This document shows, one piece after another, positions 3,980-62,826 of a stretch of DNA of 64,000 nucleotides. The notes under the pieces were generated by a model. The model was not told the origin of the DNA. It searched no databases and saw only the letters and a program-made list of their open reading frames with translations. Location of the stretch: assembly GCF_048128805.1 (NCBI RefSeq), contig NC_136000.1, forward strand, positions 14,230,854 to 14,294,853, in the 5' to 3' direction. Made by a program: the position numbers and the translations under genes. Each line of letters starts with the position of its first letter. The first letter of the stretch is position 1. The stretch is from Centroberyx gerrardi (Eukaryota > Chordata > Actinopteri > Beryciformes > Berycidae).

Positions 3980-4637
3980 CTGGATGACCTCATTGACCTC
4001 CCTGATACACTCCACCATATGCTGTAGGATCTGCTCGGCAGTCAAAACTTCGAAGCGGTAGTCCTCCTCTTCTTGGCCTGGGCCGTGGCCACTTCCACCA
4101 GTCTCACCGCACTCGTCTCGCTCCCCACCGGCCACCACGGGATCGACCAACTCCACCTCTCCGAGCTCCAGGGTGTCGTCCTCGGGTTCCTCTTCGGCGC
4201 TGTCTTCGCTGCATTCCTCCTCTTCGTCGTCGAATTCATAGTTATAACCCTCGTCTGAGTCCATTCCTAGGGTGGTTATCAACTTGTGACAAGCACACCT
4301 AAAGGTCTAGAGTGTGTGAAATGTTGATTGCGGAACAATACAAAAACCAAAATTATCCGAGCCTATTTTTCAGCTGCAGCGAAAATAACAACAAAACGTC
4401 GCCGCTGCTAAGCCAACAAAGAGACACAGCGTCACCAACTGACGACGACCTTACGTCAGACGGACTGTAAAATAAAATATTTTAAAAAATAATGGTATTT
4501 ATACCTTATACCACAAAGTTTGTCCTTATTTTGTACACTGTGTCCCCGAACCTATTTTAAAAAATATACAAATAGAAAACAAAATATGAGACGTCAGCCG
4601 CTATAATCAATCACCTGCGGCTACGTTCCTAACGTTA
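3380..4637. repeat. Cluster of TAACGTTA palindromes around the arih1 start
   Basis: The exact 8-mer TAACGTTA begins at 3380, 3456, 3591, 3634, 3640, 3902 and 4630, several within a longer GCTAACGTTAGC context and mixed with GCTAGC/GCTAAC words. Two other copies seen in the window are at 21788 (17 bp into stoml1 coding sequence) and 26102 (cyp11a1 intron 1, 65 bp after the donor). Confidence 0.8.
3980..4264 (-). CDS. arih1: arih1 exon 1 (coding part): RBR-type E3 ubiquitin ligase Ariadne-1, N-terminal acidic region
   Basis: The exon encodes 95 residues starting [11 protein letters not shown], followed by a long Glu/Asp stretch, a Gly-rich [17 protein letters not shown] segment and a final NEVIQ, closely matching the start of vertebrate ARIH1. 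The donor is CAG|GTAGGT just below 3980, and the human gene also breaks after NEVIQ. ARIH1 is a RING-between-RING ligase that adds ubiquitin to substrates of neddylated cullin-RING ligases; the RING domains are in exons left of the window. An in-frame ATG at 4282 would add MITTLG, but 4264 is chosen because the family begins with MDSDEGYN. Partial gene: only exon 1 and part of intron 1 are present. Confidence 0.95.
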
Positions 4638-5214
4638 CACTTCCAACTTCCCTTTCACGAAAATGTAGGGAAGGCCAACGTTTAAAAAAAATCAAAACGA
4701 TAAAAAAAAAATAATAATAACGAATGTTACTGTACATGACCGAGTTTGTTTGTACTATTCTAGAGTTGTTCTAAGACTTTATTATAAAATGTTATCCTAT
4801 TTTATAATGCAGTAATCTGCTCCATGCACTAACTAAAATCACTATATTCCTGTAATGTTCCTATATGGACTTGTAGTGTGTTGCTCAATGGTAAATTTAT
4901 AGTGACCTTATTATATTTTATGGTAGGCATATTTTTTTTAAATCTCCCACAGTTTCTAGGCCTGTAATATTCTATGACCCCTATAGGATATTATATATGT
5001 TTTGCTGTGATATTTACTATCCCACTATTTGCCTAGTTCATTTTCATAAGGGCGGTCTTCCAAATCGCATGTTGCTAGGCTATATTATTTTACCTTTTTG
5101 ACAAACCGACATACCACCACACCTTGTGCCCCACAAAGTCATGTGACTGAATGTTTTGAAGCACCTGACTGGAAGTGCTTTGAGTAACAAACAAGGACTA
5201 GTGGAATAGAAGTC
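4265..5214. promoter_or_regulatory. Head-to-head arih1/hexa promoter region
   Basis: The 950 bp between the divergent arih1 and hexa start codons must hold both transcription starts unless an unseen 5' exon exists. A CRE/ATF-like TTACGTCA lies at 4451-4458, another GACGTCA at 4590-4596, and TAACGTTA at 4630-4637. An E-box in the context GTCATGTGAC lies at 5138-5147, 68 bp before the hexa ATG. The hexa half is AT-rich and no convincing TATA box was seen. The regulatory role is inferred from position and motifs. Confidence 0.6.
5138..5147 (+). promoter_or_regulatory. E-box (CLEAR/M-box-like) upstream of hexa
   Basis: The ten bases GTCATGTGAC differ by one base from the CLEAR consensus GTCACGTGAC bound by TFEB/TFE3/MITF, and contain the TCATGTG core of the MITF M-box. 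HEXA is a known member of the CLEAR lysosomal network, and the site sits in the expected promoter-proximal position. Binding is not shown by sequence alone. Confidence 0.5.
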
Positions 5215-7416
5215 ATGTCTAAAGTTAATGCTAGGCGTTACTGTCGTACGCGATTTCAAATCCTGTCTTTAATTATTCTTCAGTTAGGCCTACAGACAGT
5301 GGAGGGAGTATGGCCATTACCGCAGACTATAACCACCTCAACGGAGCGATATTCACTGAACCCGCAGGACTTCAGCTTTCACTATGGAAGGTACTCAGCC
5401 ACGCAACAGGGCTGCTCCGTGCTGGATGATGCGTTCAAGAGATATTTTTCTCTAATTTTTCCAGATTACGTTTCAGGTAGGTCATAAAGTCAAGAGTACC
5501 TAGCTGGAAATGGATGTAAGATTTTAAACCTTTCTAAAATATATGTGCCCTAACAAAAATGACTGAAGGCTAATATTCCTACAGGGACTTATCGTGTGTC
5601 TGTGGCGCTAAATAGTGAAATTCTAGTGACTTTACAGTAGGCTAGTTGATTCTTTTTTTAATGTCCTGTGGTGTCCCTATAATATTTCTAGAAATTTTAT
5701 AGTTTTGCTGTAATATTTGTCTAGCAAGTAAAAGTGAAAGTGTTTGCGCTCTTGACAAAAAGGCTTACCAAAAATGTACGTCAGGTGCACAGATAAGCAA
5801 ATCACTGGGTTGAAGGAAGTAGCCCGCACACTGACATATTTGTATAGCACTCATCTACCCACCCATCTGGATTACTGTTGTATAGCTATATAAAGACGAG
5901 GTCTTAGGGTCTGATTTCTTTTTCCTGGCCTCTTGATAACTAGTGGGCACCAGGAGTGAATGAGGCTGGTGATGCAAATATTTAAGATTGCACCTTTACC
6001 TCATTTGTATGAGTGCACAACACTGTAGAGCAAAGCACTCCCTGTGGTTTTGTTCTGCCCTTTCTGTTTGTCATGTTGGCTTTTAAAGTAGATCAATGGG
6101 CTTTGTAAAGGCAGCAGTTGCCTGATGGATCATCAGTCAGCCAGTGTAGGCCTACCTGCTCCCAAAACATACAATGGACTAGAGTTCCAGGTTCATGTTA
6201 GTGTTTTTAAATATATGAAAGAATTGGCAGTTTTGGTCATAACTTTGTCAAAATGCCAATGTACAGGCTGTGTACGCTGTGCTACAAAACATGCATTCAG
6301 CAACTAATTACAGTGTTAACATTTTACTTTTGTGACCAACAGAAAATGGTGTTCCACCATCCAATGAGGCAAAATCGTTTTCTTTGGAGGTTAGTGTGGA
6401 CCAAGGAGACTGCGAGGGCTACCCAAATGAGGACTCTTCTGAGAGATGTAAGTACTGACACCCATCTACCAGAGCAACCTCAGGGAGGCGATGCAGAGCC
6501 ACTTCTTTGAGGTCACTGGCAACACCCATCCCAACCCCTAGGGCCTGTTGCATTGTCTAATCTGCTGCTACTTGTGTTCTAGACAAGCTGAGTGTCTCTG
6601 CAGGGCATGCGACCCTGAATGCAGAGACTGTGTGGGGGGCTCTAAGAGGTAATTATAATAAATACATTTATGTAGACTAGCATTTATGAATAAAGTTACA
6701 AAGGAACAAACAAAATATCTTGACAATCAGCTACAATATAGGGAAGGCTTGCATTGCTGGCTCAATGAAGGCCTGTTAAGCAAGTAACCACTGCATTATA
6801 CTGTATTTCTACATTCATGTTGCTGTATATTTGATAACTTACCTCATGAATCCAACTTTTAAATGTGTTTAGGTTAAAATGAATGCTAATTATCAACCAG
6901 ATATCCTCTGATTAAGCACAGGTCTAGAAACGTTCAGTCAGCTGGTGTATCAAGATGACTTTGGCACAGTAAGTCATCACATTTTTTCAAGTGATTCAGA
7001 GTTTTTCATCTGCACAAACATGCTATATAGCTTGGTATTTGCCTAAAATGTTAGGAACAGATAAATTATTTTTTTTCTGTTCTTTTATTTCTTTTTCTAG
7101 TTTTTTGTAAACAAGACTGAGATAGAGGACTTCCCCCGGTTCCAGTTCAGGGGGATTTTGTTGGACACTTCACGTCACTATTTACCAGTGCCGGTCATTC
7201 TGAAGACCCTGGTAATAATCCCATAATTTATTTGTTTATTTGTGCAATTTGGAAAAGAGAAAATATGAACAAATAGTATACAATGTACAGGTGATATAAA
7301 AACCCTTAAGGGCTTGTAGTAAAAACTACCCCATATAAATTCACATACATATGTCATACATATACAAACACATCCACATATACACTTGCACACACATAAA
7401 CAGACAGACAGACAGA

Positions 7417-7456
<40 letters not shown>

Positions 7457-10400
7457 ACATAACTTATGCAAACAAAGTAACAAACAAAGAGTAGGAAATG
7501 AATCAATACATCATTTGTCATTACATAAAAGAATACAAAAACAATATGTACTGTACATGAATAATACAAATAGGTCTATATATAACACCATAAGGAATGA
7601 AAGGGGTATAATATGATCTTATTTCTGTTTCATCTGGCATGCTCATGATGAATGTTATTAATAGATATGTTTCTTGTTAGGATGCGATGGCCTACAGTAA
7701 GTTCAATGTGTTTCACTGGCACATTGTTGATGACCCCTCCTTCCCGTACCAGAGCCGCACCTTTCCAGGCCTCAGCAGTAAGGTGAGACAAGTGGATGGG
7801 CACAGCTGAGTATAAAACAAGGAATAAGCCATTTTAAGTGCTGTTTAACACATAACCCTGCCCATTCTTAATGATTTACTGCACAAAGATTTTCTTTGTC
7901 TATATTTAATAAGATGATATTTGGTTGGTTTATAATATCCTAGATTTTTAACTGGGCATACTAAAAATGTGGATTCATGAGGTAAGGAAATACTGAAAAA
8001 TTGTATCCGCCCTTAACAAAGGCTTCTGGCTCTGATTCAGGGGGCTTTCCACCCGATGACTCACATCTACACACAGTCAGATGTGAGAAGGGTGATCTCA
8101 CATGCCAGGCTACGAGGAATCAGAGTCCTTCCCGAGTTTGACTCACCCGGCCACACCCAGTCATGGGGAAAAGGTAAAACTCAAAGACAATATGAGCCAC
8201 ATTTTCTGCAAAAATATAATTTTATAAGGATTGTCTTGGTTTCTCCATATGTAATTGATCTTCAACATACACTTGGCATTATTTCTGGTTTGGTACAACA
8301 GGAGTACTGCATGTTAAACCTGTCATACAAAATTGTAAATGGATACAGGCATTTACTGAAGCCTGAGCTTGACTACCTGTTATCCAGAAGACACTTCCTT
8401 GTGGTCTTATGCTTGTCATTATCATCATTGATTGTCATCAGCAGTTTCTCATTTAGCAACTATATATGTATGTGTATATAGCAAGTTTCTGCTCTTATCA
8501 GACAATACAAGAAATGTATTTAAACTAAACGCGTAATAAAAATTGTTTAACTAAAGTAAACTTTTAATTGCCCTTCTGTTCCCCAGGTCAGTCTGACCTG
8601 CTGACTCCCTGCTACAGAGCAGGAGCCCCTTCAGGTTCCTTTGGTCCTGTTAATCCAGCCAGAGCCTCCAGCTACCAGTTCATGGCCACGCTATTTAAGG
8701 AAGTGTCAGCTGTGTTCCCTGATTCCTTTATTCACTTAGGAGGAGATGAGGTTGACTTCAGCTGCTGGTAGGCCAAAGTTTGATCGATCAATAAATTAAT
8801 ACCTGATGTCTTTTAATGCCTTAAACTAAGCCCTTCCATTTTGGGTTATGATTATTTGTTTCCAGTGTTAGGGAATCTGGGTTTGTTACAGGGTTAGGCA
8901 TCAGAGGTAGTCATAAAAAATAATTAATTACAAAAAATGAAGAAAAGGATGAAAAAAACAATTCCCTTCTTTTCTTTTCCAGCCCAAACTAGTTGGTCAT
9001 TACAGTACTTAACTACGCCTCAAAATGACAATAATGAACTACTAGTAACACTATCCAAACAAAAACTACCTCCAAGCTACTGCAAAATGTAGTTAAACTT
9101 TAATTACATGAAGTGAAATTACTCCACAACACCGTTTGTTTCCCATAGGAAGTCCAACCCTGACGTCCGGACATTTATGCAGAGGATGGGATTTGGAAAC
9201 GATTACACCAAACTGGAATCATACTACATGGAGAAGTAGGTAGCAACTAGGAACAGACTGGGCTCAGGTTGTGGTGCTATGTATGATCAAATTTAGTCAG
9301 AGCATCAAAGTGGGACATACACATTAATCCTACAAAAGTAATTGTCTGTATTTCCAGCATTGTGAACATAACTTCAGCTCTCAACAAGACAGCCATAGTG
9401 TGGCAAGATGTTTTTGACTACCATGAACGAGTAAGTACACAACAAATGACACCTGCCTCTGAAACATAATCCAAACTATATTTATGTATCACAGTAGAGC
9501 CTCATCTATGTGAATTTATCTACGCTGCCCCACAGCTGTAACAAAATAGGCGACAATGAGAAAATGTGCAGGATTGTTGAAATATCATTGTGATTAAAAG
9601 TATTTCAACTGCAAATTAGACTAACTAAATGTTTGAAAGTAAATTTAAATGCACATAATCTTTAACAAAATTTCAGTAACCGAAACACTTTCTTTGAATG
9701 ACCACCATTTCTGATTAGTTAAACCTCCTACTGTACATGAACGATCTAGCTGTCTCCGTCTTTAGAGTTCATATATGTCTGATGGACTAGAGGACTGTGT
9801 TGCAGCGCAGCTCTCTGTCAGTGGTGGAGGTGTGGAGAGACGGCTGTTACCTGTGTGAGGTGCGCAGGGTGACTAAAGCAGGGCTCAAAGTGATTCTGGC
9901 CTCTCCCTGGTATCTGGACAAGCCAGGACCCACACACGACTGGGCCCGCTACTACGCTGTGTGGCCCCTCGCCTTCAAGGGTCAGAGCAGAACCGTGTGC
10001 AGTGGATAGTTGCAGTGTATTCAGTACTAACTGCTGTGTTGTTTGTCTTTAATAATCATAGAGATAGAGATGGAGATAAAACTTGATTTTCTTCTGGAAT
10101 ATAGGCTATACATGGCCAATCCCTTTTGTCTGATACAGACTGTTCTGATTACAGCCATACCACTAGGTGGCAGTAAAGACTTTCATAAATACTTCATTGT
10201 TACAGAGACATGGAGAAGTATTGGTGTTTGCTGTGTAATTAGCTTGAATGGTGTTAAAGCCCACAGTGGCGTCTTACAGATTAGGTGTGGCATCATGGGT
10301 AACCCGCTAACTCCTCCCCCGAAACACGGAGAGATGAGTGTGCCCAAATCTGTCCTTAGCTTGCACTCTGCAGCCATTTGCAAAGCTCCTCCCAGACAAA

Positions 10401-12430
10401 TATCAAGGCTATATATAAATATCACACACCTGTGCCCCTCCCACTCTATTGGTAGCAGAAACACAGTCAGCTATTTCCTAACATTTTAGGCTGTGGCGTT
10501 TTCCCCTGCCCTTTTAGTTGTCAGTTCCCTTTTCGCATTGAGAGACTGAGATAGAATTTCTAAATGGGCATCGCTAACACTGATCTCCTGTGGAGCTATA
10601 ACCAAAAAGGGTCTTTCCACTATATGCAGGCTATTGAACCTGCCTCCCCACATCAATATTTCTGCTACAACTTAACAATAATACCTTGTCAAGAGTGTAT
10701 ATCAGCAGTGGGCATTTAAGTGTCTGGCCCCTTCAGATGAAAAAACTGACAAAATTGTGAGAGACACCATACTGCAGTGAGAAACAACTATAAGGTTTGT
10801 TTTAAAACCTGGGCCTACATCTATTTGACTAGTTTTCACACCATTAACTGTATGATTTCTTTGCCCTGAAGAAGAATGATCATCACGTATCTAGTGGCAG
10901 ATAGTTTGGAAGCTTCACATGCTCTTCTTAACTTTCCTTGGTCAGAGTGCTCTACAGTGTGCACTACATGTTCAAAGATTATGATCCTCTGAAGACTGGG
11001 TATTTTGACAGGGCTCTTAATTTATGAACAGTCTGTTTGGGGCAGAGTGCGCTCTGGCACCGGGAGAAACAATTTAAAAAATGCACCTGGGATTCAGATG
11101 GTTCATATCATGGGAGAGGTATGAATCAAATGCAAGCTTATCTCAGTGCAAGCTTGTACTGATAAAAGCATTTTTGTGAAAGTGTTGATTTTTTTCTTTA
11201 AACCAAACCACTGAATGTAAGCAGATAAAGCAATACAGCAGGCAGACAGTGACTGACTGTGGCAAACACCAAACAAGACAAGTGCAGAAGGGCAAGACAA
11301 CATGTTGTTTGTCACCCTGCTCAGATTCCCAAGGACACAGTGCTGCACATCTGGAAGGGCCTCCCTGCTGATTATAAGGCAGAGCTCAGCAGGATCACCA
11401 AAGCCGGGAACAGGGTCCTGCTGGCTGCTCCTTGGTATATCAACCACATTGCCTACGGCCAGGACTGGCCCAAGTTCTACACTGTGCAGCCACAGAACTT
11501 CTCTGGTGTGTTCAAGGCCAAGCAATATACTATTATACTAGTATTATATTATATAGACTGGCCTAGTTACCTGCAGGTGGTGGTGCTTGCCTGGTGGTGG
11601 GAGTTGCCGATTGCTGTTCACACATAGATGATGTAGGATGCATGTTTTGAAAACCATGAACACAGGTTGCTATGCCGGAAAAGAGTCTTGATCCATTTAA
11701 ACATTCACTTGCTGAAAATATTAAGTAAAGGTACTCAGGTATTTGAGTGTTGACTTGGAGTGGTGGTGTGATAAAGCTGAGTAAAGAATCTGACTGCAAT
11801 GTAAAGTATATGCTTAAGTACAATAATTAACCACATTGTGTTGAAATTCTACATTGTGTTAAGTCAAAGTTTTGATTGTCCCTTCACAGGTACGGAGGAG
11901 CAGAAGAAGCTGGTGATTGGGGGCGAGGTCTGCATGTGGGGGGAATATGTTGACGCCACCAATCTCTCTCCACGTCTTTGGTATGAGAGCATGACAAACA
12001 CAAAATCACAACAGCAGTCAACATACAGTAATTGCAGTAACAACTTAAAGCATGACTTCATCCAACACACTCTCTGGTTGTGCCCAAAATCCCAGGCCGA
12101 GGGCAAGTGCTGCAGCAGAGAGACTTTGGAGTGATGAGAAGCAGACCTCCAGTGTGGACCAGGCATTCCCTCGCTTGCGGGACTTTCGTTGCAAGCTGCT
12201 GAGGTAGATTTTTCTATCCAGGACCTTTAAACAGTACAGTGCTTGCATTTTTCTAACAAAAGACTCATTTTTTGTTGATACCATAGGCTGTTCCAGTTTC
12301 TAGTCTTATTTATATACCTGCTTCATTAGATATTCATGTTTTTCCCCCTTTTCCTTTCTCTCCAAGGCGTGGCATCCAGGCGGAGCCTCTCTTTGTCGGC
12401 CACTGCAGGCATGAGTACCAGGGTGTTTGA
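5215..12430 (+). CDS. hexa: hexa: beta-hexosaminidase subunit alpha (lysosomal GH20 glycosidase), 14 exons plus an alternative exon 11
   Basis: Exons: 5215-5476, 6343-6447, 6583-6648, 6922-6968, 7101-7211, 7681-7782, 8041-8173, 8587-8767, 9149-9235, 9358-9430, 11 (9806-9980 or 11325-11505), 11890-11980, 12096-12203, 12367-12430. Phases close exactly; with 11325-11505 the product is 536 aa (human 529). It removes terminal GlcNAc/GalNAc; the alpha subunit pairs with beta to degrade GM2 ganglioside with the GM2 activator. Visible: hydrophobic signal ending near TVEG, mature start VWPLPQ; substrate-binding Arg185 in [16 protein letters not shown]; catalytic Asp329-Glu330 in [22 protein letters not shown] near the C-terminus. 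A hexb identity is unlikely: the mature start, exon 11b and C-terminus read as alpha. A poly(A) signal follows at 12748. Exon 11 duplication is described separately. Confidence 0.95.
7419..7454 (+). repeat. (CA)n microsatellite in hexa intron 5
   Basis: About 18 CA units, preceded by (CAGA)n at about 7401-7414. The long Cys/Val ORFs on the minus strand here are only the repeat translated. Confidence 0.95.
9806..9980 (+). CDS. hexa: hexa alternative exon 11a (upstream copy, beta-like pocket)
   Basis: This exon is 175 nt, enters in phase 0 and leaves after one base (AAG G|GTCAG), as exon 11b does. It is fully open and reads [12 protein letters not shown], then RRVTKAG, then [10 protein letters not shown], then [16 protein letters not shown]. 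By hand alignment 21 of 59 positions equal exon 11b, with a 2-residue gap whose length and VVEVWRD/PWYLD pattern look more like HEXB. Catalytic-pocket Tyr425 is kept, followed by Leu-Asp427-Lys428 where exon 11b has Ile-Asn-His. The acceptor is weak: the pyrimidine run lies near 9749-9763 and other AGs intervene. No stop or frameshift suggests decay. It would replace, not add to, exon 11b. Confidence 0.75.
10160..10173 (+). promoter_or_regulatory. CTCF-core-like motif between hexa exons 11a and 11b
   Basis: The 14 bases CCACTAGGTGGCAG fit every position of the CTCF core CCASYAGRKGGCRS. The site lies 180 bp after exon 11a and about 1.15 kb before exon 11b. CTCF binding near an exon is known to slow polymerase and favour inclusion of weak upstream exons (CD45 exon 5 is the textbook case). 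Single matches occur by chance and inside fish repeats, so function is conjecture. Confidence 0.4.
11325..11505 (+). CDS. hexa: hexa exon 11b (downstream copy, alpha-like pocket)
   Basis: This exon is 181 nt, phase 0 in and phase 1 out, with acceptor CTGCTCAG|ATT and donor CTCTG|GTGTG. It reads [12 protein letters not shown], then [10 protein letters not shown], then [16 protein letters not shown] and [11 protein letters not shown], matching the corresponding human HEXA segment better than exon 11a does. Tyr427 is the conserved substrate-pocket tyrosine; Asn429-His430 occupy the positions of human alpha Asn423-Arg424, which contact the acidic group of sulfated or sialylated substrates. I take this as the form giving the canonical alpha subunit. 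Confidence 0.88.
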
Positions 12431-12753: not shown

Positions 12754-15700
12754 AGGATGCAGATTTTTATTGTGTATATATAGATATATATTTTAACACT
12801 ATAATTATCAATATGCTTTATTTAGTCTCGCACTGAAATGTCACAATAATATGTGTGCAAGCAGACACAGTGATCCTGAACCTTTTCTTCTAAGCACCCA
12901 TTACTAAGACTCTTTCATTGTGGAAAGACTCACCCATGAACAGACTAAGACTAGTGCTGGCCCTCTCTGTGTATAGACCACTGAATATGATGCATAGATG
13001 CAATTGCATCAACAGTTAGTTCTAACTGCTGGGATAATTGCACCTGACAGCCCAACTGATATCATTTAATATTCATTTAGAACATTACCAAAAAAATCAT
13101 TACCCATTCACTTTTAGAGAAGTCATTTGTAACTCAAGTTAATAATTCCAATGTTAATTTACATTTGAATGCTCAGTTTCATCCATGCCAAAGAGTATGG
13201 GTTGGCCATGTAGGAGACATACTCCCAATAAGCTTCTCAGTTACTTTGTCAGCAGTAACATGGACTTTACGATAAGTCTCCCTAATGTTTAATTTACTTG
13301 TTGAATTGAGCTGACATGTCTTTGATATGGACTGAGACAATTGATTTTCACATTGTGTGGATTATAGCGGTGGCAGCAGATGGCAGGGCGGGGCAATCCC
13401 TGGTGCCCATAGTGCTGACGCCTCAATCCTGCTCCCACTCTGTTCCCAATCTGAATTGGGGGGACTATAGAGGGCTTTGCGGTGCCGAACGGAACTAGCT
13501 GAGCTTAACAACACAACCTTGGTTTACCATCCTGTGTAGTTGCTGGGAAGAACAAAGATAATTGGAATCAGCTGGACAGACAGAACAGAAGCTCTTTGCC
13601 ATTATACCTGGGCTGGAATAGCATTATGAATAGATTATACTGGCTTTATTTAGGCAAAATTCCTAAGTACACATTTTGGGCTTAAACAAAAAGGCTTTTT
13701 TTTTTAGTTAGGGTGCACAATATGTGGAATTGAGGTGGGGGCTTAAGGGTGGATGGGATTGTTCTAAAAAATGCAAAAATTGAATTTTGTGAATTTATCT
13801 CTGCAAGTATATCTACTGTCAAATTCCTAATAATAAACACAGTTAAAAAAAATAAAAAAATTGTGATCTATGAAAATCTATTTTGATGTTTCAATTAGCT
13901 ACATTTATTTTGTTCGATTTTGTTACCATTTTTCTTCTATTTATGCCAAATATATGTCCATTGTTTTATCATAGTATCATGTAGCAGAATCTATGATGAA
14001 CTCAAGAACAGTTTCATAAATGAGGGCCTATCACTTTTCTGGCTATGATTGCTCACATAAAAATAATACACCATCAATTATGTCATTATTTTACACCCTT
14101 GCAACTTGAGGCACCTGCTACCTGCATACAAAGAGGCCACCAACCTCTTAAAAAGTTAATCTCACTCTTTGACAATAGCTGACATTCAAGGAGATTATAT
14201 ATAAAGCTGCTTAGGCTGATGCATAGATTTGTGAACTAGTGTTCAAGGGCATCCACTCAAGGGCAAGCAGAAAATACACCTTGTACAGTGTTGTAATAGT
14301 AAAATGTGCTACCAATGTGTATTATACAGTGTATAATAGCCCCAAAATCAAATGACTACAGTGAAAAACATATTTAAGATACTCTTCAGGTATAGTATTT
14401 GTAAAAATAAAGGTACTCTTTAACTGATGAACAGCTGATCTGTCTGATCTGCCACGCAACTGAGTTAGGGTTTTAATAGTGATGTGTGTCCGGTCACCTG
14501 CAGGGCTGCTGTCATCAGAAATATTTCTAAATACCTTAGTCCATCTTAATCATCCAGTTGGCTCATGGCAGGTGGCTGCTAAAGATTGCCTGGATCTGCA
14601 AAACAATCAGAGGGCTGCTGAGCTCCATCACAGTGCTCAGGAGTGCAGAAATGTGACAGTTATCCCTTCCAGGCAGCATTGTGCTGATGGCAGCAGCATC
14701 TCATCAGTACCAGCAGCTGGACTGTCAGAGATCTAGGTAAAGACGGAAAGGCAGGGAGAACTTATTTCATATTTCATCTTCACTGTAATGGAAAGCTTTG
14801 GTAATTCCCCTTTATATATGTGTAACTCATTCACACATCTAGATTTGGCATATGATATATTCAGGTTTCAAGGTATCATCACATACCACAAACCATCAGA
14901 TTTCAAACATCCATGGTCTGAAACATCTAACCAACAAGTAGTCACAAGGATGACCTATAAGCATGTGCCTTACATGTAAAGACTTACACTTAGTATGTGC
15001 CCTACTGTTTATTTGTGTGGAGACTTGTGTGGATGATCTGCTTCCCCCTGATGTGCAGGTAAGGTAATCCATGTGGTTCCTGTCCTTTAGGCCCTAGCAG
15101 GACAACCTGTATTATGTAATATTGCAGAATTGGGACTCCAGATTGCAACATTCAGCACTGCTTGGATCAGTATAATTAAGCATTTTAGGCTCATCCGATG
15201 TGACTGACAATGAGTGCAACACTAGAATAGGCTTAAGTTCCTAGATCGGCAACAACAACAGATGCACTTAAAATCTGTGACAAGAAGAATGAGTAGGTAT
15301 CTGATGTTTTGATTGTAAATTAATACAACTACTGTTCAAAGTGAGACAGGTAGGTTATGCTTCATTGATACATAGCTCTAAATGTGTGAAAATTAGATTA
15401 AATCCACTTGAAAACTCAAATTGAGTAGTATTGAATGCAGATGCTCGCACACAATTAGAGATATAGCTCTCAAATTTAGAATTCACATATGTTTTTCTGA
15501 TGGCCCAGGACATTTCAATCAGCTTCTCCCAAAGTTAGAAATGAGAGAACCCAGATTGTAATCTATGATATAATAATTTACAGGCCGGAGTTGCTCCATT
15601 CACAATGAATGAGGAACTGACTATGGTGCCATGCAATGCTTTATGAGCTTTGATATTAAATGGCATCAAACATAATTACAGTAGATCTATCAGTCCCAAA

Positions 15701-18116
15701 TCAGACAATGTACACTTATTATCAGAAAATCATATTGGGTTCTCCACAGACTTACTTTAAATTTTCTCCTATTCATTCTCTATGGAAATGTACATCAGTA
15801 TGCAGCACAACTTACTGTAATTTCTGGAAGTCAGTCACAAATGCTTACAAAAACAGACTGAACATAGCAAGACAAAATCATATTTCAAAGTTAAAATTCA
15901 ATGGTACCCCCTTTAAGTTTAGTCTGGGGGAAGGTCAATATGCTATTTGAATTCAACAGGTTACCAAAACTGAGTACATTGAACTTAAAGGCCCAATCTG
16001 TAATTGCAGTATGGTGCCCCATGTTGTCAACCCACCACTAAGTTTGTTTCCATACTGCTTTACTGGACTGAAGACATTTTCATTTTATAAGTATTGTGAG
16101 GCTAGTTTGGTTCATTTACTTTTGTAATATCTGCAATAAAACTTACCTGTAGAGAAGTTATTTCCCATCTAGTAAGGTGAAACACCTCAATAACATGTGT
16201 GAATCAACCCAAAATGCACAGTCAAATATATTGTTGTAGTTTTTAGTAATATATTTACTCTGGCACTTACTTCTTGAGAAAAACCTACATTGTCCCCCTC
16301 CCCAGATTATACAGCTGATTCAGACAACGAGTTCCGAGTTCAAATGGCTCCGTCTGCCAGCCATGACGACCCCCCTAGACTGCTCAGAGTCTGTAATCCT
16401 TTTATACACCAGTTTAGGCCAACAGAAGAGCTCTGTTTTCAATACAAAGTGGCCCTCCTAAAATCAAGAGTGACTTAATAAGGATTTTAGACATGAAAGA
16501 AATCAGTCTGTGGACAAGCCAGACAGTCACTTCAGTATCTCTAGTGACTTAGTGTTACTTTGGGGCTCCGTCAAAAACTGACTGAACAGAGTAGATGTTA
16601 TTGTAGTTGGAGAAAATTCTGGTGCTCTCTCATTGCAATTACTCCTATTAATGACTTCAGCCATGGTTAGAGAGATCTGTACAGAGAATAGTAAGCATTG
16701 GCGTTGCTACTTCCAGCTTTTCTTTGTGATCCTGCACTATCTAATAGCTTACGATAAAGCCACACATCATGGAAAAGAGCAGATCACTGACTTCAGGCCG
16801 CTCATTACTGGTAAATTGTGCATGGGTCACTAATTAGGCAGACTGGGGATCCAGAGAGCAGCCACCATATGGCAGAAGAATGGACTTAAGGGTCAACTCG
16901 TTGCTGCTCTTTCAATCTCAGAGCTAATTGTTTTTCTTCTCATCACCCCCTTCCATGATCCCCCTCAGAGAGGGAGACCACGTTTCATGGTTGTATAAGC
17001 TACTTTGCTGATTTGGGGTGTCTGTATTCTCCTGAGGCCACATGGCAAGGGTGCTGATGTTAAGTGTCATTGGCAGGACCAAAATGGCACAGAGGGAATG
17101 CCTTAACTAGGCTATAAAACTTGCTCTGCAAACAGGAAGGTGATCCAAGTACTTTATAGGAGTATGTATCTAACACTGCCTTTTGGCATGTACATCTGTG
17201 CAACAAATTTATATTACAAAACATGACAACAATGGAAAATTAGAAATTAGAAAACATTAGATGATAATGCGCTACCCATTTGTGCATCTGAGGCCACTCT
17301 AGATTTACATGTCTCACAGTGACATGAGACATATTGTGAGAAGAATGGAGTTGGTCAAAGTAGGAAATCTGTCTTAGCTTTAAGAAAGAAATGGTTGACA
17401 GAGAGCGAACATGGAATAATAGAGAAAACAATGCAGATTACAGTTGATCAGGTAAGTGTTGGCTGGTGATATCACCACTCAGCAGCAGCATCTACTAATT
17501 GCAGTGCATGCATCATAGATGAATTTGATAGCAGTGTGGGCTAGAGGAAAAGGGTGCTGCATGAATCCTTCCTTTTCATTTCCAATGTTCACATTTGTTG
17601 AGTATGGTTATCCCTCTAAGTGGTGTGACTGATTGATTCACCCTTATGGACAGTAAAGATTAAGAGGATGACAAATCAGCATTTGCTTACACAGCGCCTG
17701 CTGCTAATCTTCTTGTCTTCCTTCGGAGAGCCTCCAGACGACACAAGCTCACACACTCATTCTGGCAGAGAGGAAGAAAGAAGTAGAGAGGCGGCAAACT
17801 ACTTCTGTAACTCTGCTGACCCCCCTCGTTACATCAGAAACTACCAGCACAGGACCTACAACTTCAGGCACTCCAGGATCTGAGGATCTCTGCAGAAGTT
17901 ACATCAGAACTATCAGCCTTGGTGAAATGAAATTCTATATCCTTTTCTTTTGAGGGACATTGCAAAGTGTCAAGACTTCTCATGAAAGATTGCTTTGATC
18001 GAGCCAGACGACAGCAAAGAGGACAGCTTTATACAGAAGAGGAAATAATTCTGGGAATAATCCCTCATTTGTATAAAAATAATTTATTAAGACATTCAGA
18101 TAGCATACATCTGAAA
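12754..18116. other. Intergenic region hexa to nr2e3, with probable nr2e3 5' UTR at its end
   Basis: No gene was recognised in this 5.3 kb. Open frames on both strands are short, lack family signatures and have no consistent splice context. The sequence is AT-rich (for example 13680-13930). The segment of about 17670-18116 is purine-rich and contains GT/AG-like sites next to nr2e3, so it probably holds 5' UTR and promoter. In-frame ATGs upstream of the chosen nr2e3 start begin at 17982. Confidence 0.5.
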
Positions 18117-20739
<2,623 letters not shown>

Positions 20740-20881
20740 ACGGGCCTCGAGGAGAGCAAAATGAAGCCGGCTGTCAAGCAACACGATGTCTTGCTGTATA
20801 AACTTTACTTCTTTCATTTTTTCATGAAAGTTGTGATTTCTCCCAGATGCAGAATAATTAAAGCTGATACCATTCTAATGA

Positions 20882-20887
20882 AATAAA
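20882..20887 (+). other. nr2e3 poly(A) signal
   Basis: AATAAA 143 bp after the nr2e3 stop, with a T-rich stretch just downstream; a second AATAAA lies near 20972. Confidence 0.65.
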
Positions 20888-21770
20888 CATATTGTTTTTG
20901 TTCAGTGATGGTGACACTACTGACTTTGTAAGTATTAGAATTTTGTTAAAAATGCTGCTTCTCCTAAACTGAATAAATCACTTTTGAGTAGTAAGAAATA
21001 CAATTTTGTTTTATTATTTGAAAATGAAAATGTGTATTTTGAATTAATGTATTTGTACTAAATATGTGCATAAATATCTGTTTTATATGACATGTCTATT
21101 CATCTCTGGCCATAATTTTAATTTACTTGAGTTGTTTACTAGACGGTAAAGGTGTGAAGATTAATTTTAAGTCACCAAACTCTGCCCAAAGAACTTCATA
21201 GACTAGAACACTGGTTCCCAAACTGGGGTCCGGGTGGTCCACTGGGTCCCCAGCAAAATAAGGAATAGTTTTATTTCACTATTATTTCATCCACTATAAG
21301 TCAGCACTAGGACAGAATGTAGGAGAATATAACTATCCTGATCAGAGGTTTACTTCTCCTAAAAGAGACAGACAACAACAAAAAACAAAACAAAAATCTT
21401 CTGAAATCGGGGTCACTGAGACAAAACCTTGATCATCTGTTGTCAAAAACCCATGTTATGTGGGTTCAGGAATATAAAATCTATGGTCGGCAGTCCAGGT
21501 ACTACCTAGGTGGCGGTAATGCGCAAATTTAAGGTTGAGTGGCAACCGCCGACAGTAAACACCAAGAAGAAGAGGAGGAAGAAAACACGGAAGAAGCTCA
21601 ATCAACAAACAGTTTTCAGCTAAAGCGGTTTGGGTTTTTAGTAACCTTACCAAGTTTGACGACTTAATTCGACGATGCGGTTTTTGGTGACAGTTTGTCA
21701 CAGAAGCTACAAGATAAGCTATTAATCATGACGTTATTTTTTTAAGAAATAAACGTAATTGCACATGACA
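20888..21770. other. Intergenic nr2e3 to stoml1, with stoml1 promoter
   Basis: This 0.9 kb is AT-rich at first, then contains a lone arm resembling a hAT transposon terminus (CACTGGTTCCCAAACTGGGG near 21211-21230) with no partner arm. The last 250 bp has CpGs and a CTAGGTGGCGG motif near 21506, and probably holds the stoml1 promoter and 5' UTR. No coding segment was seen. Confidence 0.5.
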
Positions 21771-24700
21771 ATGTTTGGCAAGACGTCTAACGTTAGCTAC
21801 CACCAGTACAAGCCCCTTCCTCAGAGAGACTCCTCACCAAGAGGTCCCGGGCAGTTTGTGGCCACAGAGAGCTTTAATGTACCGCAAGCCAACTACCACA
21901 AAGGACACTCATTTGACTACATCCCCAAAATCACCGAGAACGACTTCACTGGTAGGTAACACTAACTACAGCAGGAGGTTTTAAAAGAAGTCACTACGGG
22001 CTAACGGAGAACAGTTAGCTAAATGACTATAACAGTGGTGTTGAGCTAATAACCAAACCAGACTCAAATAATCAAAATAAGTCTGTTTTCCCTTACCAAT
22101 TTCACTGTTGAACTCTAGGGGAGAGGAAATTTCAAGTTGACTATTCAAAATGAACGATGGATGTTGTCATATTTAGTGAGTGGCTCTATCGTGTAAATTT
22201 GACTACAGCAGCATCATATATATTGTAACTAAATTTTGTTCCCTTTCTTACAGATGCCTCCCAAGGATGGCTGTCCTGGATTTGCAACCTGATTGTCACA
22301 TTCCTGGTCTACATCTGCACGTTCATAACCTTTCCTATATCAGGATGGTTTGTGCTCAAAGTAAGCTGAAATGATCTCTGTATCTAGTTAACAATCACCT
22401 CTCACCTATTAAGACTAGTCATAATAAACTCTGACTGATCTTGTCTGTAGGTGGTTCCTAACTACCAGAGGATAGTGGTGTTTCGTCTGGGTCGGGTTTG
22501 TCCTCCAAAGGGCCCGGGCGTCGTCCTCGTGCTGCCCCTCATCGACCAGTGGCAGAGAGTAGACCTGCGCACCCGAGCCTTCAACATCCCTCCTTGCCAG
22601 GTACACCACTGTACAAAGGATAAGATATTAGATATAGAAATTCGGGTGTCACAGCAGCAATGTACAGTACAGTAGCAGAACAAAGCACAGAAGGTAATAA
22701 AAAAAATAACAGAAAAAGAATAGGAATATGTCACCATACAGTCAGTTGTTATGACGGACAACTCTTTCAAATCCTCAAACACTGAAACATTGACAAATGT
22801 GGAGCAAGAAAAACCTTTAATTGTAGCCAGGTGGGAGGATAGTGTGTTCACCGAAGTACAGTCATGTGGAATTAGCTTTGTTTCTTTAAAAAAAATAAAA
22901 ATAATAATAATCATACTTGATAGCTTCTCTCAGATTCTCTGACAAGTTGTTAGCACAAACCACCCTGGCTAAACTAAACTAAACTAAATCAAGAAATTAA
23001 GTTATGTTCCTAAAAACCACAGATTAAAGTTTGCTCTTCATTTTCTTCTTCTTGGTGTTTGCATTTCTGATGCTCAGGTTGATCTGAGGAAGACTGTATA
23101 CCTTTTCTTTACATAAGCGACAGCAAGCACAGATGAGAAACTCTTATGTCATCAGTGTAACATTTTGAATATGTGATTCTTACACATGTGAGTCGAGGTG
23201 TCTTTGCTGCTCACCAGCCACAGGCAGTTAAATCAACATTTTGGACCATTCCTCATGTTCAGGGCCAATTGAATGTGTAAGGCTTCTTATTTATGTTATG
23301 TGAGTGTGTTTTACTCCTACAGGTGGCACTGTTGGTGCACTGTTCAGTTTTGAAACCAGAGAGTAAACGGACACTGGGAACAGCCAGGATACTATGTGGC
23401 AGCACACGTTTTATGTATAATGTTTGTGAATAACCGTTAATAAGAGTTGTTATGTTAGTTCATATTGTTGGGAATTTATTCCAGAACTTTACAAATACCA
23501 ACAGCAAGTGCTCTACATTAAGTATATCAAACTTTTACTTTTCCATTTCTGTGTGTTGAGTGTCTTCTAGCTCGTCTTCTGTCTCCCTTCTTGAATCCTC
23601 CTTGTTTAACTTGTGTACACTCTTGAGCATTGGGAACAACGTCTAATACGCGGATCAGTCTAAATGTGGTAAAATCTTTGCCCTCATAATTTTCATATTT
23701 GAATACAAATCCTTGACTTATTTAGCAAAAATGAGTAGTGTGAATATGTTTTGAATGTTAGAGTCAAGGAGTCAAGTTTGGGTCACTTAATGGTGCCAAG
23801 ACCCTCCTTGTGAGCAGTCAGCATTTGAACTTTAAAATCAATCTTACACAGTGAACACAGCTGATACCTGCTTTAGGAATAAAGAAAGAGGTGATGTCTT
23901 CATATCTAGACTAGTCATATGTATTTTCAGATGAATTTGAATCTATTAGACAATACCCAAGAGCCTCCTTTCTGTAAATTGTGACAAATCTTAAGTTACC
24001 AGTATTTTCACCAGTACCAGGAGTAGGTCTAAATAAATGTAAATGTCTTGTAAAATGTTACCTTGTTAGGTGTCTACGCGGGATGGCGGTGTGTTGTCAG
24101 TGGGAGCAGACATCCAGTTCAGGATCTGGAACCCGGTCATGTCAGTGGTGTCCATCCAGGACCTCAACGCCTCCACCAGGCTTACGGCACAGAATGCTAT
24201 GACCCACAGTCTGGGCAAGAAGACTGTCAGGGAGATCCAGACTGAGAGAGTCAAACTGGGAGAATATCTCGGGGTGAGACAACAGTAGATAGACTTTTTA
24301 TTGCCTTATCAACTGGCTGCTGACTTTTCAAACTATCAGTTCAAACCAACTTCCCTTCTTCCTCTCTACAGATGGACATCAATGAGATGACTCGGCCCTG
24401 GGGGCTGGAGGTGGACCGGGTCGAGCTCACCTTGGGCTCTCTGCTGAAAGCCCCGGAGGGAAGCCCATCTGGACAAGTCATCATGCCTCCCTCTATACCT
24501 GGACTGGAAGGCTTCGCTGGCCCCATTCAGCAGCTGGCTATGCACTTCCTCAGTCACAGTGGAGTTTCACAGCCTGAGCAAGGTATTGCAACACACTCAA
24601 ACTTATTTTATGCTGTATGTACCCACTACTGTAATGTCGTGTAATGTGTCTGTGCCTTGTGTGTCCTTAGAGGACAGTGTGACGTTTACAGACGAGCTTA

Positions 24701-25240
24701 GCAGTGCGCCTCAGGCTGTGGTGGCCACGCCGGGTTCTGTGGAAGAGCTGCTCGGGGTCGTCAAGTCGCTGCTGTCCGAAACTTTGGTCAGCCAGGTGGG
24801 GGCCAGCTTCCAGTTTCACATCAGCTCAGAAGATGGACAACATCAGAGTTACTATGTGGACCTGACCCAAGGTAATGCTTCATAATGAACAGGGGATACA
24901 ACGGTGATAACAGAATTTTCATTGAGATAAATTCAGGAATTTAATGCAAGTTCTGCTAAATCTGTTTAAGAATGCTGAAAATCTTGTAGTAAATAGCAAT
25001 GAATGTGTGTGTGTGTGTGTGTGTGTATGTGTGTGTACTGTAGGTAGTGGTGCAGCTGGTGCAGGGTCCCCATGCCAGGAGCCAGATGTCACACTGAGCA
25101 TGAGTGACAGCGACCTGATGGCCATGTTCGAGGGCAGACTACAACCATTCGCTGCTTATACCAGCGGCAGACTGATAGTCCAAGGAGACCTGCAGACTGC
25201 CATGAGGCTGGAGGAACTCATAAAGTTAACTAGGAAATAG
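21771..25240 (+). CDS. stoml1: stoml1: stomatin-like protein 1 (SPFH domain plus SCP2 sterol-transfer domain)
   Basis: Exons: 21771-21951, 22254-22360, 22451-22600, 24070-24273, 24372-24582, 24671-24871, 25044-25240; phases close to give 416 aa (human 398). Order: a cytosolic N-terminus with a YKPL (13-16) tyrosine sorting signal, comparable to the GYRAL motif that sends human STOML1 to late endosomes; a hydrophobic hairpin at about 66-95 (WICNLIVTFLVYICTFITF, PISGW); the stomatin/SPFH domain at about 97-250 (VPNYQRIVVFRLGRV, GPGVVLVLPLID, VDLRTRAF, LTAQNAMTHSLGKKTVREIQ, WGLEVDRVEL); then a C-terminal SCP2-like domain at about 310-416 (VSQVGASFQFHISSEDG, GRLIVQGDLQTAMRLEEL). STOML1 is thought to move cholesterol at endosomal membranes. 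The start MFGKTSN is preferred over an ATG two codons earlier (21765) because it aligns with human MLGRSGY. Exon 7 is preceded by a (TG)n tract. Confidence 0.95.
25004..25036 (+). repeat. (TG)n microsatellite before stoml1 exon 7
   Basis: About 16 TG units with one interruption, ending 7 bp before the exon 7 acceptor AG (25042-25043). It stands where a pyrimidine tract would normally be. Confidence 0.9.
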
Positions 25241-25426
25241 CTGTTTGTAGTAACCTTTGTAACTTAATATTTATTTATCTTTAATTTTAACTGAAAAGTA
25301 CATGCTCAGAGCACATTCTTTTTCATGTATGCACCGATTACACTTATTATACACTGATTTTCTGTTATGGCCTTGTCTTCCTTCACAAATCAAAGCAAAT
25401 GCTTGTTTACAAAGACAAAAACTTTC

Positions 25427-25435
25427 TCAAGGTCT
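25427..25435 (+). promoter_or_regulatory. SF-1/NR5A1-like motif upstream of cyp11a1
   Basis: TCAAGGTCT fits 8 of 9 positions of the NR5A consensus YCAAGGYCR. It lies 331 bp before the cyp11a1 ATG. SF-1 is the established activator of CYP11A1 in vertebrate steroidogenic tissue. No binding evidence is available here. Confidence 0.4.
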
Positions 25436-25561
25436 TAGAACCACGACCTAGTTTTAGAGAAATGATCAGACCGATGCAACTACTCAGACAGCACAAAGTC
25501 AAACTTTCTCTGACCACACACTTTTTCCTGTGAGGTGAATGTAATATACCATGGTATATTA

Positions 25562-25567
25562 AATAAA
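25562..25567 (+). other. stoml1 poly(A) signal
   Basis: AATAAA 322 bp after the stoml1 stop and about 200 bp before the cyp11a1 start codon. Confidence 0.55.
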
Positions 25568-25765
25568 ATATTCAACAACTGAAACGGTTACACAGATACA
25601 CTGTGGGTTTATTCTATTAGGCTGTAAGTTTAACTGAAGAGCCTTGATCAGGACAGCGAGGGGGGCTGACTATTTAGACCAGCCTCCCTCTATTGCACCA
25701 GATGTCCCTGGGAGAGACAGAGCAGCTGCCATAGGTAGAGCAGAGGGAGCATTTTTGTCGCTGGG

Positions 25766-28700: not shown

Positions 28701-28897
28701 AGTTCCAATATATTTTTGTGGCACATTTACACAGAATCTTAACTATGTTTGTACATTGTCTTTTGCCATTGCAGATGCTAGAGAACTTCAGAGTGGAGAA
28801 GCAGCGGCATGTGGAAGTGCAGAGTACCTTCGAGCTCATTCTGTTACCAGAGAAGCCGATTGTACTGACTGTGAAGCCTCTACAAAGCAGTCGGTGA
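25766..28897 (+). CDS. cyp11a1: cyp11a1: mitochondrial cholesterol side-chain cleavage enzyme (P450scc)
   Basis: Exons: 25766-26037, 26366-26521, 26659-26858, 26973-27176, 27375-27535, 27712-27878, 28243-28321, 28484-28675, 28775-28897; phases close to 517 aa (human 521). P450scc converts cholesterol to pregnenolone at the inner mitochondrial membrane with electrons from adrenodoxin: the first step of steroidogenesis. The N-terminus is Arg-rich and Asp/Glu-poor, as in a mitochondrial presequence. Seen: I-helix oxygen motif AGGVDTT (326-332), K-helix KETLR (383-387), [17 protein letters not shown], and heme loop [15 protein letters not shown] with ligand Cys461. Segments such as [19 protein letters not shown] match CYP11A rather than CYP11B or CYP27. 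Some fish have a second cyp11a copy; with one copy visible I call it cyp11a1. An SF-1-like site lies upstream. Confidence 0.95.
27607..27668. repeat. Fragment of a dispersed teleost repeat in cyp11a1 intron 5
   Basis: The stretch reading TGTAAGCCCTTTGAGACTG, then AAGGGCTACACAAATAAACTTGACTT, resembles the 3' tail of a very common fish retroposon. Only the tail is present. The family assignment is from memory of such tails. Confidence 0.55.
28457..28476 (+). repeat. (TG)n tract before cyp11a1 exon 8
   Basis: About ten TG units end 7 bp before the exon 8 acceptor AG (28482-28483), taking the place of a normal pyrimidine tract. Confidence 0.9.
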
Positions 28898-29246
28898 CAG
28901 AAAGTTTCAGAGAAAATTGTGGTGTTTTGTATTGTCCTTAATCACAGTTACAGTCTCAAAGGGCTTCTCGATGCCCGCACTATAAAAACAACAAATGAAA
29001 ACGACTTCCTCCAACCTTAGACACTCACTGAGGACAAGGAAAAACTCCCCTGTAAACTTCATTAGGAAAAAAAATGTCAAAAATGTGCATGAACAAATTA
29101 CCTCAGTAAATGCATGGAAATGTGTAGTCCACGTGCGTACTGTTTATTGAAAAGTATTGAATGTACAGACCTGTCATTCCATGTGTACATGGCAAAAGCA
29201 TTTTTTAAAATACAGAAAAGGAATGTATCCATATAAACAACTAATT

Positions 29247-29252
29247 AATAAA
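29247..29252 (+). other. cyp11a1 poly(A) signal
   Basis: AATAAA 350 bp after the cyp11a1 stop. It lies about 70 bp from the candidate ccdc33 poly(A) signal on the opposite strand. Confidence 0.6.
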
Positions 29253-29319
29253 AGACTGAACAAAATGCATCTTGTTATGAAAATGTATATCTAAAAATAC
29301 TTAGATCAAAATATCAATT

Positions 29320-29325
29320 TTTATT
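29320..29325 (-). other. ccdc33 poly(A) signal (minus strand)
   Basis: TTTATT on the plus strand reads AATAAA on the minus strand, 61 bp beyond the ccdc33 stop codon. A second minus-strand AATAAA is at 29143-29148, inside the cyp11a1 3' UTR. Confidence 0.55.
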
Positions 29326-29385
29326 ATGAAAGAGAAATGTCTGTGTGCGCCATTTGATCTGGATCATCAGTTCAATGGCTGCAGG

Positions 29386-62826
<33,441 letters not shown>

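What the first reader, a model, noticed from the sequence alone, without database searches (positions are those of the whole stretch)
9806..11505. hexa carries two frame-enforced, mutually exclusive copies of exon 11
Seen: two intact segments (9806-9980 and 11325-11505) both encode the same region of the hexosaminidase barrel (VW or IW ... TKAG ... PWY ... DW ... FxG), both enter in phase 0 and leave after one base, both with GT-AG borders. Reading both in series hits a TGA 16 codons into 11b (counting the split codon). Skipping both hits a TGA at the ninth codon of exon 12. So only one copy at a time gives an enzyme. The copies share about 21 of 59 residues by hand alignment yet keep the structural residues, so both seem to be under selection for a long time. 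I know of no described splice variant of this kind in HEXA.
Basis: partly seen in the sequence, partly recalled or inferred. Interest (0 to 1): 0.93.

Follow-up and report, generated by a model that had tools for sequence, protein, structure and literature searches.

The report
Swappable exon in fish Tay-Sachs gene
Many ray-finned fishes carry two interchangeable versions of one exon in hexa, the fish counterpart of the Tay-Sachs gene, and the swap changes the residues that decide which sugars and gangliosides the enzyme can digest, so one gene may make two different lysosomal enzymes.

Summary
Window hexa (5215-12430) has two intact, homologous, same-phase exons 11: 11a (9806-9980) and 11b (11325-11505). 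Either alone gives an open 534 or 536 aa enzyme; both or neither hits a TGA. It is not a one-off. 11a was found in 97 teleost proteins and an 11a-type exon in a sturgeon and a paddlefish, so the duplication predates their split from teleosts. In the window and nine other species both isoforms share their flanks, and 11a is as conserved as 11b (78.9% v 79.1%). The swap hits the residues that separate human alpha from beta specificity: 11b keeps alpha-like N423 (96 of 96 fish rows); 11a has beta-like D423 (96 of 97 teleost rows) and lacks the alpha loop. In eels and allies the two exon types sit in two genes. Best reading: an ancient mutually exclusive pair switching the alpha subunit between an anionic-substrate and a beta-like pocket. 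Not shown: 11a in transcripts (9 of 9 transcript-like records of the blind search are 11b), activity, regulation. NCBI already predicts both isoforms; ten paper searches listed no description.

The parts
5215..5476 (+). hexa exon 1 (start codon, signal peptide by position)
   Evidence: gene model
6343..6447 (+). hexa exon 2
6583..6648 (+). hexa exon 3
6922..6968 (+). hexa exon 4
7101..7211 (+). hexa exon 5
7681..7782 (+). hexa exon 6
8041..8173 (+). hexa exon 7
8587..8767 (+). hexa exon 8 (holds GGDE; catalytic role recalled)
9149..9235 (+). hexa exon 9
9358..9430 (+). hexa exon 10, constant, ends in phase 0
9806..9980 (+). exon 11a: beta-like version (EVW...GCYLCE...[13 protein letters not shown]); weakest acceptor tract (7 of 17 pyrimidines, lowest of 14 acceptors)
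11325..11505 (+). exon 11b: alpha-like version ([10 protein letters not shown]...[13 protein letters not shown])
11369..11371 (+). TGA met when 11a and 11b are read in series
11890..11980 (+). hexa exon 12, constant, entered after one base
11914..11916 (+). TGA met when both exons 11 are skipped
12096..12203 (+). hexa exon 13
12367..12430 (+). hexa exon 14 (coding part, stop codon)

Best explanation
hexa exon 11 was duplicated before the sturgeon-teleost split, and the copies have been kept as a mutually exclusive pair. Both exon lengths are 3n+1, so only one-exon mRNAs are in frame; double or zero inclusion meets an early stop, probably cleared by nonsense-mediated decay (inferred). The choice rebuilds the active-site rim. 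11b gives an alpha-like subunit: N423 with H424, in many rows a loop like the human IPV398 loop, and the YGQDW stretch. 11a gives a subunit that keeps W392 and Y421 but has beta-like D423 with K, Q or L at 424, no IPV loop, PGPTHDW in place of ISYGQDW in a stretch that bears on the dimer interface, and a new CxxC. Most likely 11b makes the form for anionic substrates (GM2, 6-sulfated hexosamine) and 11a a form for neutral substrates with altered pairing. Shown: exons, frames, conservation, residues. Inferred: expression of 11a, decay, specificity, dimer effect.
For: Frame logic. 11a in 97 of the 202 proteins gathered; 75 of the 97 run in frame into exon 12. In one search, a search on exons 1-10 only and so blind to exon 11, 60 of the 120 listed rows carry 11a type, 56 carry 11b type (one of them a fluke), 1 both, 3 neither. 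Sturgeon and paddlefish 11a-type exons join teleost 11a at 99/94 support. Window plus nine species with both isoforms: flank of about 220 aa identical in nine of ten (carp over 210), 219/220 in stickleback; mean identity over 45 pairs 11a 78.9%, 11b 79.1%, flank 82.3%; 11a v 11b within a species 33-44%. Classed by the first half of the exon alone, position 423 is D in 96 of 97 teleost 11a rows (the exception, P0169, is a model fused from both exons) and N in 96 of 96 fish 11b rows, with H424 in 94 of 96. PMC3587417 (passages) names alpha N423-R424 v beta D452-L453 as the main cause of anionic-substrate hydrolysis and IPV398 as an alpha loop not encoded in beta. PMC11698352 (passages) lists P429Q and KD432-433RK among HexM substitutions, and these fall in exon 11. 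Eels and allies carry the two exon types in two genes, so 11a can serve a gene on its own if 11b is truly absent there.
Against: No RNA read was seen. In the blind search the 9 records whose only source is 'lgn' are all 11b; their contigs of 1.7-3.7 kb hold 506-537 or 538 aa, so they should be spliced transcripts (inferred). None of the 97 11a rows lists 'lgn'. 9 of 97 11a models appear to join 11b out of frame (8 end soon after, P0194 regains frame), 3 hold both exons by odd joins, 10 run into the intron or stop early. 11a has the weakest acceptor tract of the gene. Residue 424 in 11a is variable (Q 57, L 34, K 5, N 1) and basic in this window. Sturgeon and paddlefish 11a have N423, so the D came later. 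The IPV-like loop is shorter or lacks the proline in several 11b rows (carps, gar, sturgeon, tarpon and others). Zebrafish lacking hexb lose 99% of hexosaminidase activity (PMC10002607, passages), so hexa products give little activity alone on that assay.
Confidence: 0.6

Rival explanations
1. 11a is a poison exon: its main use is to join 11b out of frame and lower hexa output through nonsense-mediated decay, and it makes little or no protein.
For: 9 of 97 11a-bearing models appear to run from 11a into 11b out of frame, 8 of them ending within 15 residues; in the window the series stop lies 134 nt before the last 11b base; 9 of 9 transcript-like records of the blind search are 11b; weak acceptor.
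Against: A poison exon needs no protein conservation, yet 11a amino acids are kept as well as 11b, with W392 and Y421 in 97 of 97; 75 of 97 models run in frame to exon 12. Elopomorph and bonytongue 11a genes give long proteins with 11a in frame.
Confidence: 0.12
2. Both isoforms are made, but 11a mainly changes subunit pairing (a dominant or decoy alpha chain) rather than substrate choice.
For: 11a rebuilds the 425-433 stretch (PGPTHDWAR for human ISYGPDWKD); HexM changes P429Q and KD432-433RK lie there; each active site needs residues from the partner subunit (PMC3587417 passage). Zebrafish hexa adds little activity without hexb.
Against: W392 and Y421 are kept and D423 is near-invariant in teleost 11a, which points to a working pocket; no dimer model could be made (structure prediction switched off).
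Confidence: 0.2
3. The exons are plain redundant copies under relaxed selection, used at random.
For: The same backbone motifs are kept in both.
Against: Only 33-44% identity between copies but 79% between species for each; each has its own signature at 423-429; kept since before the sturgeon split.
Confidence: 0.03

Closest known systems
Tandem duplicated exon substitution events / mutually exclusive exons (OGDH exons 4a/4b, U2AF1 exons Ab/3; abstracts seen)
   Same: Neighbouring homologous exons, same phase, one used per productive mRNA, ancient origin, identical flanks
   Different: The study of human events PMC9741552 has no HEXA in its main text. Here the swap replaces the specificity residues and part of the dimer rim of a lysosomal glycosidase, and in eels the pair appears split between two genes
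Human HEXA alpha subunit (PDB 2gjx)
   Same: Isoform B aligns over the mature length (678.6 bits); N423 kept; loop at 396-398 present in the window's 11b
   Different: H for R at 424; human has one exon 11 as far as known (recalled)
Human HEXB beta subunit (PDB 1o7a)
   Same: 11a shares EVW, lack of the IPV loop, D at the position of D452; exon-11 tree puts 11a beside HEXB (95/82)
   Different: The rest of the protein is HEXA (flank tree); PGPTH and CxxC are in none of the 7 HEXB rows seen (human and 6 tetrapods)
HexM / H1 / H2 engineered alpha-beta hybrid hexosaminidases
   Same: H1/H2 exchange the residues at 423-424 (and H2 the IPV loop), HexM residues 429 and 432-433, all within exon 11 (passages)
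   Different: Engineered for GM2 therapy; the fish swap is natural and set by splicing
Splice-isoform subfunctionalisation after whole-genome duplication
   Same: Elopomorph 11a and 11b genes are separate clades, each seen with one exon type
   Different: Absence of the other exon in each gene was not checked on DNA

Membership tests
Mutually exclusive tandem duplicated exons | Adjacent homologous exons with matching phase and intact splice borders | tested here: met
Mutually exclusive tandem duplicated exons | Productive mRNA holds exactly one copy | tested here: met
   Reading frames of all four combinations in the window
Mutually exclusive tandem duplicated exons | Both copies are used in transcripts, rarely together | tested here: inconclusive
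   Annotated proteins of both types on identical flanks in nine species; 75 of 97 11a models reach exon 12 in frame, 9 appear to join 11b out of frame; no reads available; 9 of 9 lgn-only records are 11b
Mutually exclusive tandem duplicated exons | Both copies conserved between species | tested here: met
   codon-level dN/dS not computed (no DNA of relatives)
HEXA (GH20 alpha subunit) | Whole protein closer to HEXA than to HEXB | tested here: met
   (2gjx is the best chain for both isoforms, by 652.5 v 646.1 and 678.6 v 657.1 bits); flank tree (fish rows and human HEXA against 5 HEXB rows, support 100)
Alpha-type specificity (isoform B) | N423 with a basic residue at 424 | tested here: met
   N423 in 96 of 96 and H424 in 94 of 96 fish 11b rows classed by first half; gar and sturgeon have V at 424; histidine as the basic residue is an inference
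Beta-type specificity (isoform A) | Asp at the D452 position, no IPV398 loop | tested here: met
   D in 96 of 97 teleost 11a rows, no loop in alignment; not met in sturgeon and paddlefish 11a (N)
Beta-type specificity (isoform A) | High MUG/MUGS activity ratio | not testable with these tools
   needs enzyme assay
Exon partition between teleost genome-duplication genes | Two genes of teleost-duplication age, each with one exon | tested here: inconclusive
   Separate clades 96/95 and 100/99, different gene names and contig lengths; an elopomorph-only duplication is not rejected (AU p 0.072); lost exons not checked on DNA

The most novel reading that the evidence does not exclude
Exon 11a is a beta-type exon inside the alpha gene: either copied from hexb into hexa or a relic of the state before the alpha/beta split. 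By swapping one exon, one gene of ray-finned fishes can build either an alpha-type or a beta-type pocket on the same chain. After the teleost genome duplication, eels (and perhaps bonytongues, where only 11a genes were seen) gave each function its own gene, while many other teleosts kept both under splicing control, with 11a further reshaped on the teleost stem (D423, PGPTH) into a third specificity or pairing class unknown in tetrapods.
Probability: 0.3. Interest if true: 0.85.

Novelty: new member of a known kind. Interest (0 to 1): 0.72.

Why it matters
HEXA/HEXB specificity is the core of Tay-Sachs and Sandhoff biology, and therapy designers have swapped residues of this same exon by hand. 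Fish appear to have run that swap by splicing since before sturgeons and teleosts parted. It gives a natural test of which alpha residues matter, warns that zebrafish hexa models may hit one isoform only, and offers a case of alternative splicing that may have become two genes after genome duplication.

Tried and rejected
Chance ORF, redundant or decaying copy and a separate nested gene (identical flanks of both isoforms) were considered and rejected. A U12/U2 clash as the cause of exclusion: all three introns have GT-AG ends and no match to the U12-type donor word. Crowding: the intron between the exons is 1344 nt, so steric blocking is unlikely. Pairing RNA arms: of two inverted repeats found, one weak 19-nt pair touches 11a (9788-9806 with 10455-10473, 79%); not pursued. 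Rfam: no match at gathering scores in the window. The origin of 11a stays open: the tree places 11a with HEXB (95/82), but a single alpha clade is not rejected (AU p 0.41; 61 columns, two long outgroups). Structure models of a same-species 11a/11b pair were planned (alignments) but the tool is off. Literature: ten searches; only the listings were seen, and two were capped (20 of 121 papers, 12 of 386); none listed describes paired exons 11 in hexa. Passages were read in PMC8162980, PMC3587417, PMC11698352, PMC8933327, PMC7815744, PMC10002607 and PMC9741552, none in full. PMC8933327 reports hexb, not hexa, as differentially spliced in a reef fish; not pursued. PMC2910082, PMC2910086 and PMC4774620 are not held.

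Counting notes: one search sorted the 202 proteins by text patterns that contain the PWY and D/N letters, so its D423, N423 and Y421 tallies are partly built in; recounted by the first half of the exon alone. In one search the sturgeon 11a row P0195 fell in the 11b class, paddlefish P0193 in neither, and the fused model P0169 in 11b. In one search, six second matches inside the same exon (VW, VR), tetrapod HEXB rows and the fluke row were set aside before the counts given; P0201 lacks the first half and P0182 and P0184 gave no site. In one search two Alosa rows fell below the score cut. Okisutch_11a was dropped from the tree sets. Of 4222 hits only the best 120 were listed. The nine companion species were my choice among the returned proteins, not an exhaustive list; the Mugil and Siphateles 11a rows there are truncated models.
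Full report
WHAT IS THERE. The window holds a complete hexa gene (15 exons, 5215-12430, + strand) beside the 5' end of an arih1-like gene on the other strand (named by eye). Two neighbouring exons, 11a (9806-9980) and 11b (11325-11505), encode the same stretch of the enzyme. All four splice combinations were read: 11a alone (534 aa) and 11b alone (536 aa) are open to the same stop codon; both in series end at a TGA in 11b; neither ends at a TGA in exon 12. These stops lie 134 and 64 nt before the next junction, so decay of such mRNAs is expected from the usual rule (recalled). The match between the exons is far beyond chance (116 v at most 44 in 200 shuffles). Isoform A is 524 of 534 identical to a Centroberyx affinis protein, so the window is from a berycid fish or close kin.

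IT IS NOT A ONE-OFF. A protein search restricted to the 11a region gave 86 hits at E at most 1e-3, 85 of them labelled with a fish species, from eels to percomorphs, and one without species. A search restricted to 11b gave 91 hits, mostly fish hexa and some tetrapod HEXB. A third search with exons 1-10 of a tarpon protein, blind to exon 11, listed 120 of 4222 hits; of the 120, 60 carry 11a type, 56 carry 11b type (one a fluke), 1 carries both and 3 gave no site. It added sturgeon P0195 and paddlefish P0193 with an 11a-type exon, and sturgeon P0199 and gar P0185 with 11b. In the exon-11 tree all 23 11a rows, sturgeon and paddlefish included, form one group (99/94), and human HEXA lies on the 11b side of the branch (95/82) that sets off 11a plus HEXB. 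So the duplication is older than the split of sturgeons and teleosts. Whether sharks, bichirs or lobe-fins have it was not tested.

BOTH COPIES ARE KEPT. For the window and nine other species I compared both isoforms. Over about 220 residues before exon 11 the two isoforms of a species are identical in nine of ten (carp over 210) and differ at one residue in stickleback; across the 45 species pairs mean identity is 78.9% for 11a, 79.1% for 11b and 82.3% for that flank, while the two exons of one species agree at only 33-44%. Unconstrained sequence would not do this. Codon-level dN/dS could not be computed because no DNA of relatives was within reach.

WHAT THE SWAP CHANGES. PMC3587417 (introduction and Table 1 passages) states that hydrolysis of negatively charged substrates by human alpha rests primarily on N423-R424, aligned with D452-L453 in beta, and names the alpha loop IPV398, not encoded in beta, as potentially important for the complex with the GM2 activator. 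These lie in exon 11. Sorted by the first half of the exon alone, 423 is D in 96 of 97 teleost 11a rows (the exception is a fused model) and N in 96 of 96 fish 11b rows, with H424 in 94 of 96. In 11a position 424 is Q, L, K or N (57, 34, 5, 1 of 97) and the loop is absent. At lysosomal pH a histidine can carry the charge of R424 (inference). The loop of 11b is not fixed: it is shorter or lacks the proline in several rows, gar and sturgeon among them. 11a also turns human ISYGPDWKD (425-433) into PGPTHDWAR; HexM substitutions P429Q and KD432-433RK lie in that stretch (Table 1 passage of PMC11698352). That the tyrosine of YGQDW reaches into the partner's active site is recalled, not checked. W392 and Y421 (active-site roles recalled) are kept in 97 of 97 first-half matches. 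11a carries a CxxC in 94 of 97 rows. Sturgeon and paddlefish 11a read NLIGYGQDW with the CxxC, so D423 and PGPTH arose later, on the way to teleosts.

TWO GENES IN EELS. Synaphobranchus and Aldrovandia each have an 11a protein and an 11b protein with different gene names on contigs of different length. In the tree of everything except exon 11, the elopomorph 11b genes form one group (96/95), the elopomorph 11a genes another (100/99), and the latter join the two bonytongue 11a genes (94/91). That fits one exon type per gene after the teleost genome duplication. An elopomorph-only duplication is not rejected (AU p 0.072), the deeper order of the teleost groups is unresolved, and loss of the other exon from each gene was not checked on DNA. 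The ten fishes have both exons on one gene's flanks. All 4 catfish proteins returned (P0080, P0181, P0189, P0191) carry 11a; whether catfish lost 11b is open.

RESULTS AGAINST. Direct transcript evidence for 11a was not found. In the blind search the 9 records whose only source is 'lgn', on contigs of 1.7-3.7 kb that are too short for the unspliced gene, are all 11b; none of the 97 11a rows lists that source. What 'lgn' stands for is not stated by the tool; transcripts are inferred. Nine of 97 11a models appear to run into 11b out of frame (judged from the shifted letters, not from DNA), three hold both exons by odd joins, ten run on into the intron or stop; 75 of 97 reach exon 12 in frame. 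The 11a acceptor has 7 pyrimidines of 17, the lowest of the 14 acceptors. So 11a is probably the rarer or more tissue-restricted form, and double inclusion may be a real, unproductive outcome. Zebrafish without hexb lose 99% of activity (PMC10002607 passage), so hexa products have little activity alone on that assay.

ORIGIN. The exon-11 tree with outgroups puts 11a beside HEXB (95/82), as do shared features (EVW, no loop, Asp in teleosts), but a single alpha clade is not rejected (AU p 0.41). Sturgeon 11a matches human HEXB at 35 of 59 and human HEXA at 30 of 59, but sturgeon 11b matches them at 35 of 59 and 31 of 61, so raw identity does not decide. Copying from hexb, duplication within hexa, or retention of an older state are open.

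NOVELTY. Automatic annotation already lists 11a and 11b isoforms in several fishes (names), so the exons are in databases; ten literature searches listed no paper that describes the pair. The kind, mutually exclusive duplicated exons, is well known. The place, the specificity residues of the Tay-Sachs enzyme, its age and its apparent split into two genes are what make it worth an experiment.

Noticed in passing
9845-9856 (within exon 11a): A CxxC (in GCYLCE) four residues after W392; present in 94 of 97 teleost 11a rows and in sturgeon and paddlefish 11a. Possible local disulfide or redox site (inference).
   Followed up: partly
11576-11767: Cluster of TGGTGG/GGTGGT words just 3' of exon 11b: 8 in 384 nt, the most in any such stretch of the window's + strand. 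Resembles the ESRP splicing-factor motif (recalled); one species only.
   Followed up: partly
P0080, P0181, P0189, P0191: All 4 catfish hexa proteins returned carry 11a and none 11b; 11b may be lost or unannotated in catfishes.
   Followed up: no
14500-33000: By eye from ORFs: nr2e3-like nuclear receptor near 18.4-20.3 kb, stoml1-like near 24.3-25.2 kb, cyp11a1-like P450 near 25.7-28.6 kb, a coiled-coil gene (ccdc33-like) on the - strand near 29.6-33 kb; resembles human 15q23-24 content (recalled).
   Followed up: no
P0022, P0062: Two fish gene models fuse a nuclear receptor (PF00104, PF00105) with hexa, probably run-on predictions of neighbouring genes.
   Followed up: no
4262-5215: arih1-like and hexa start codons face away from each other only about 950 bases apart, a possible shared promoter.
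   Followed up: no
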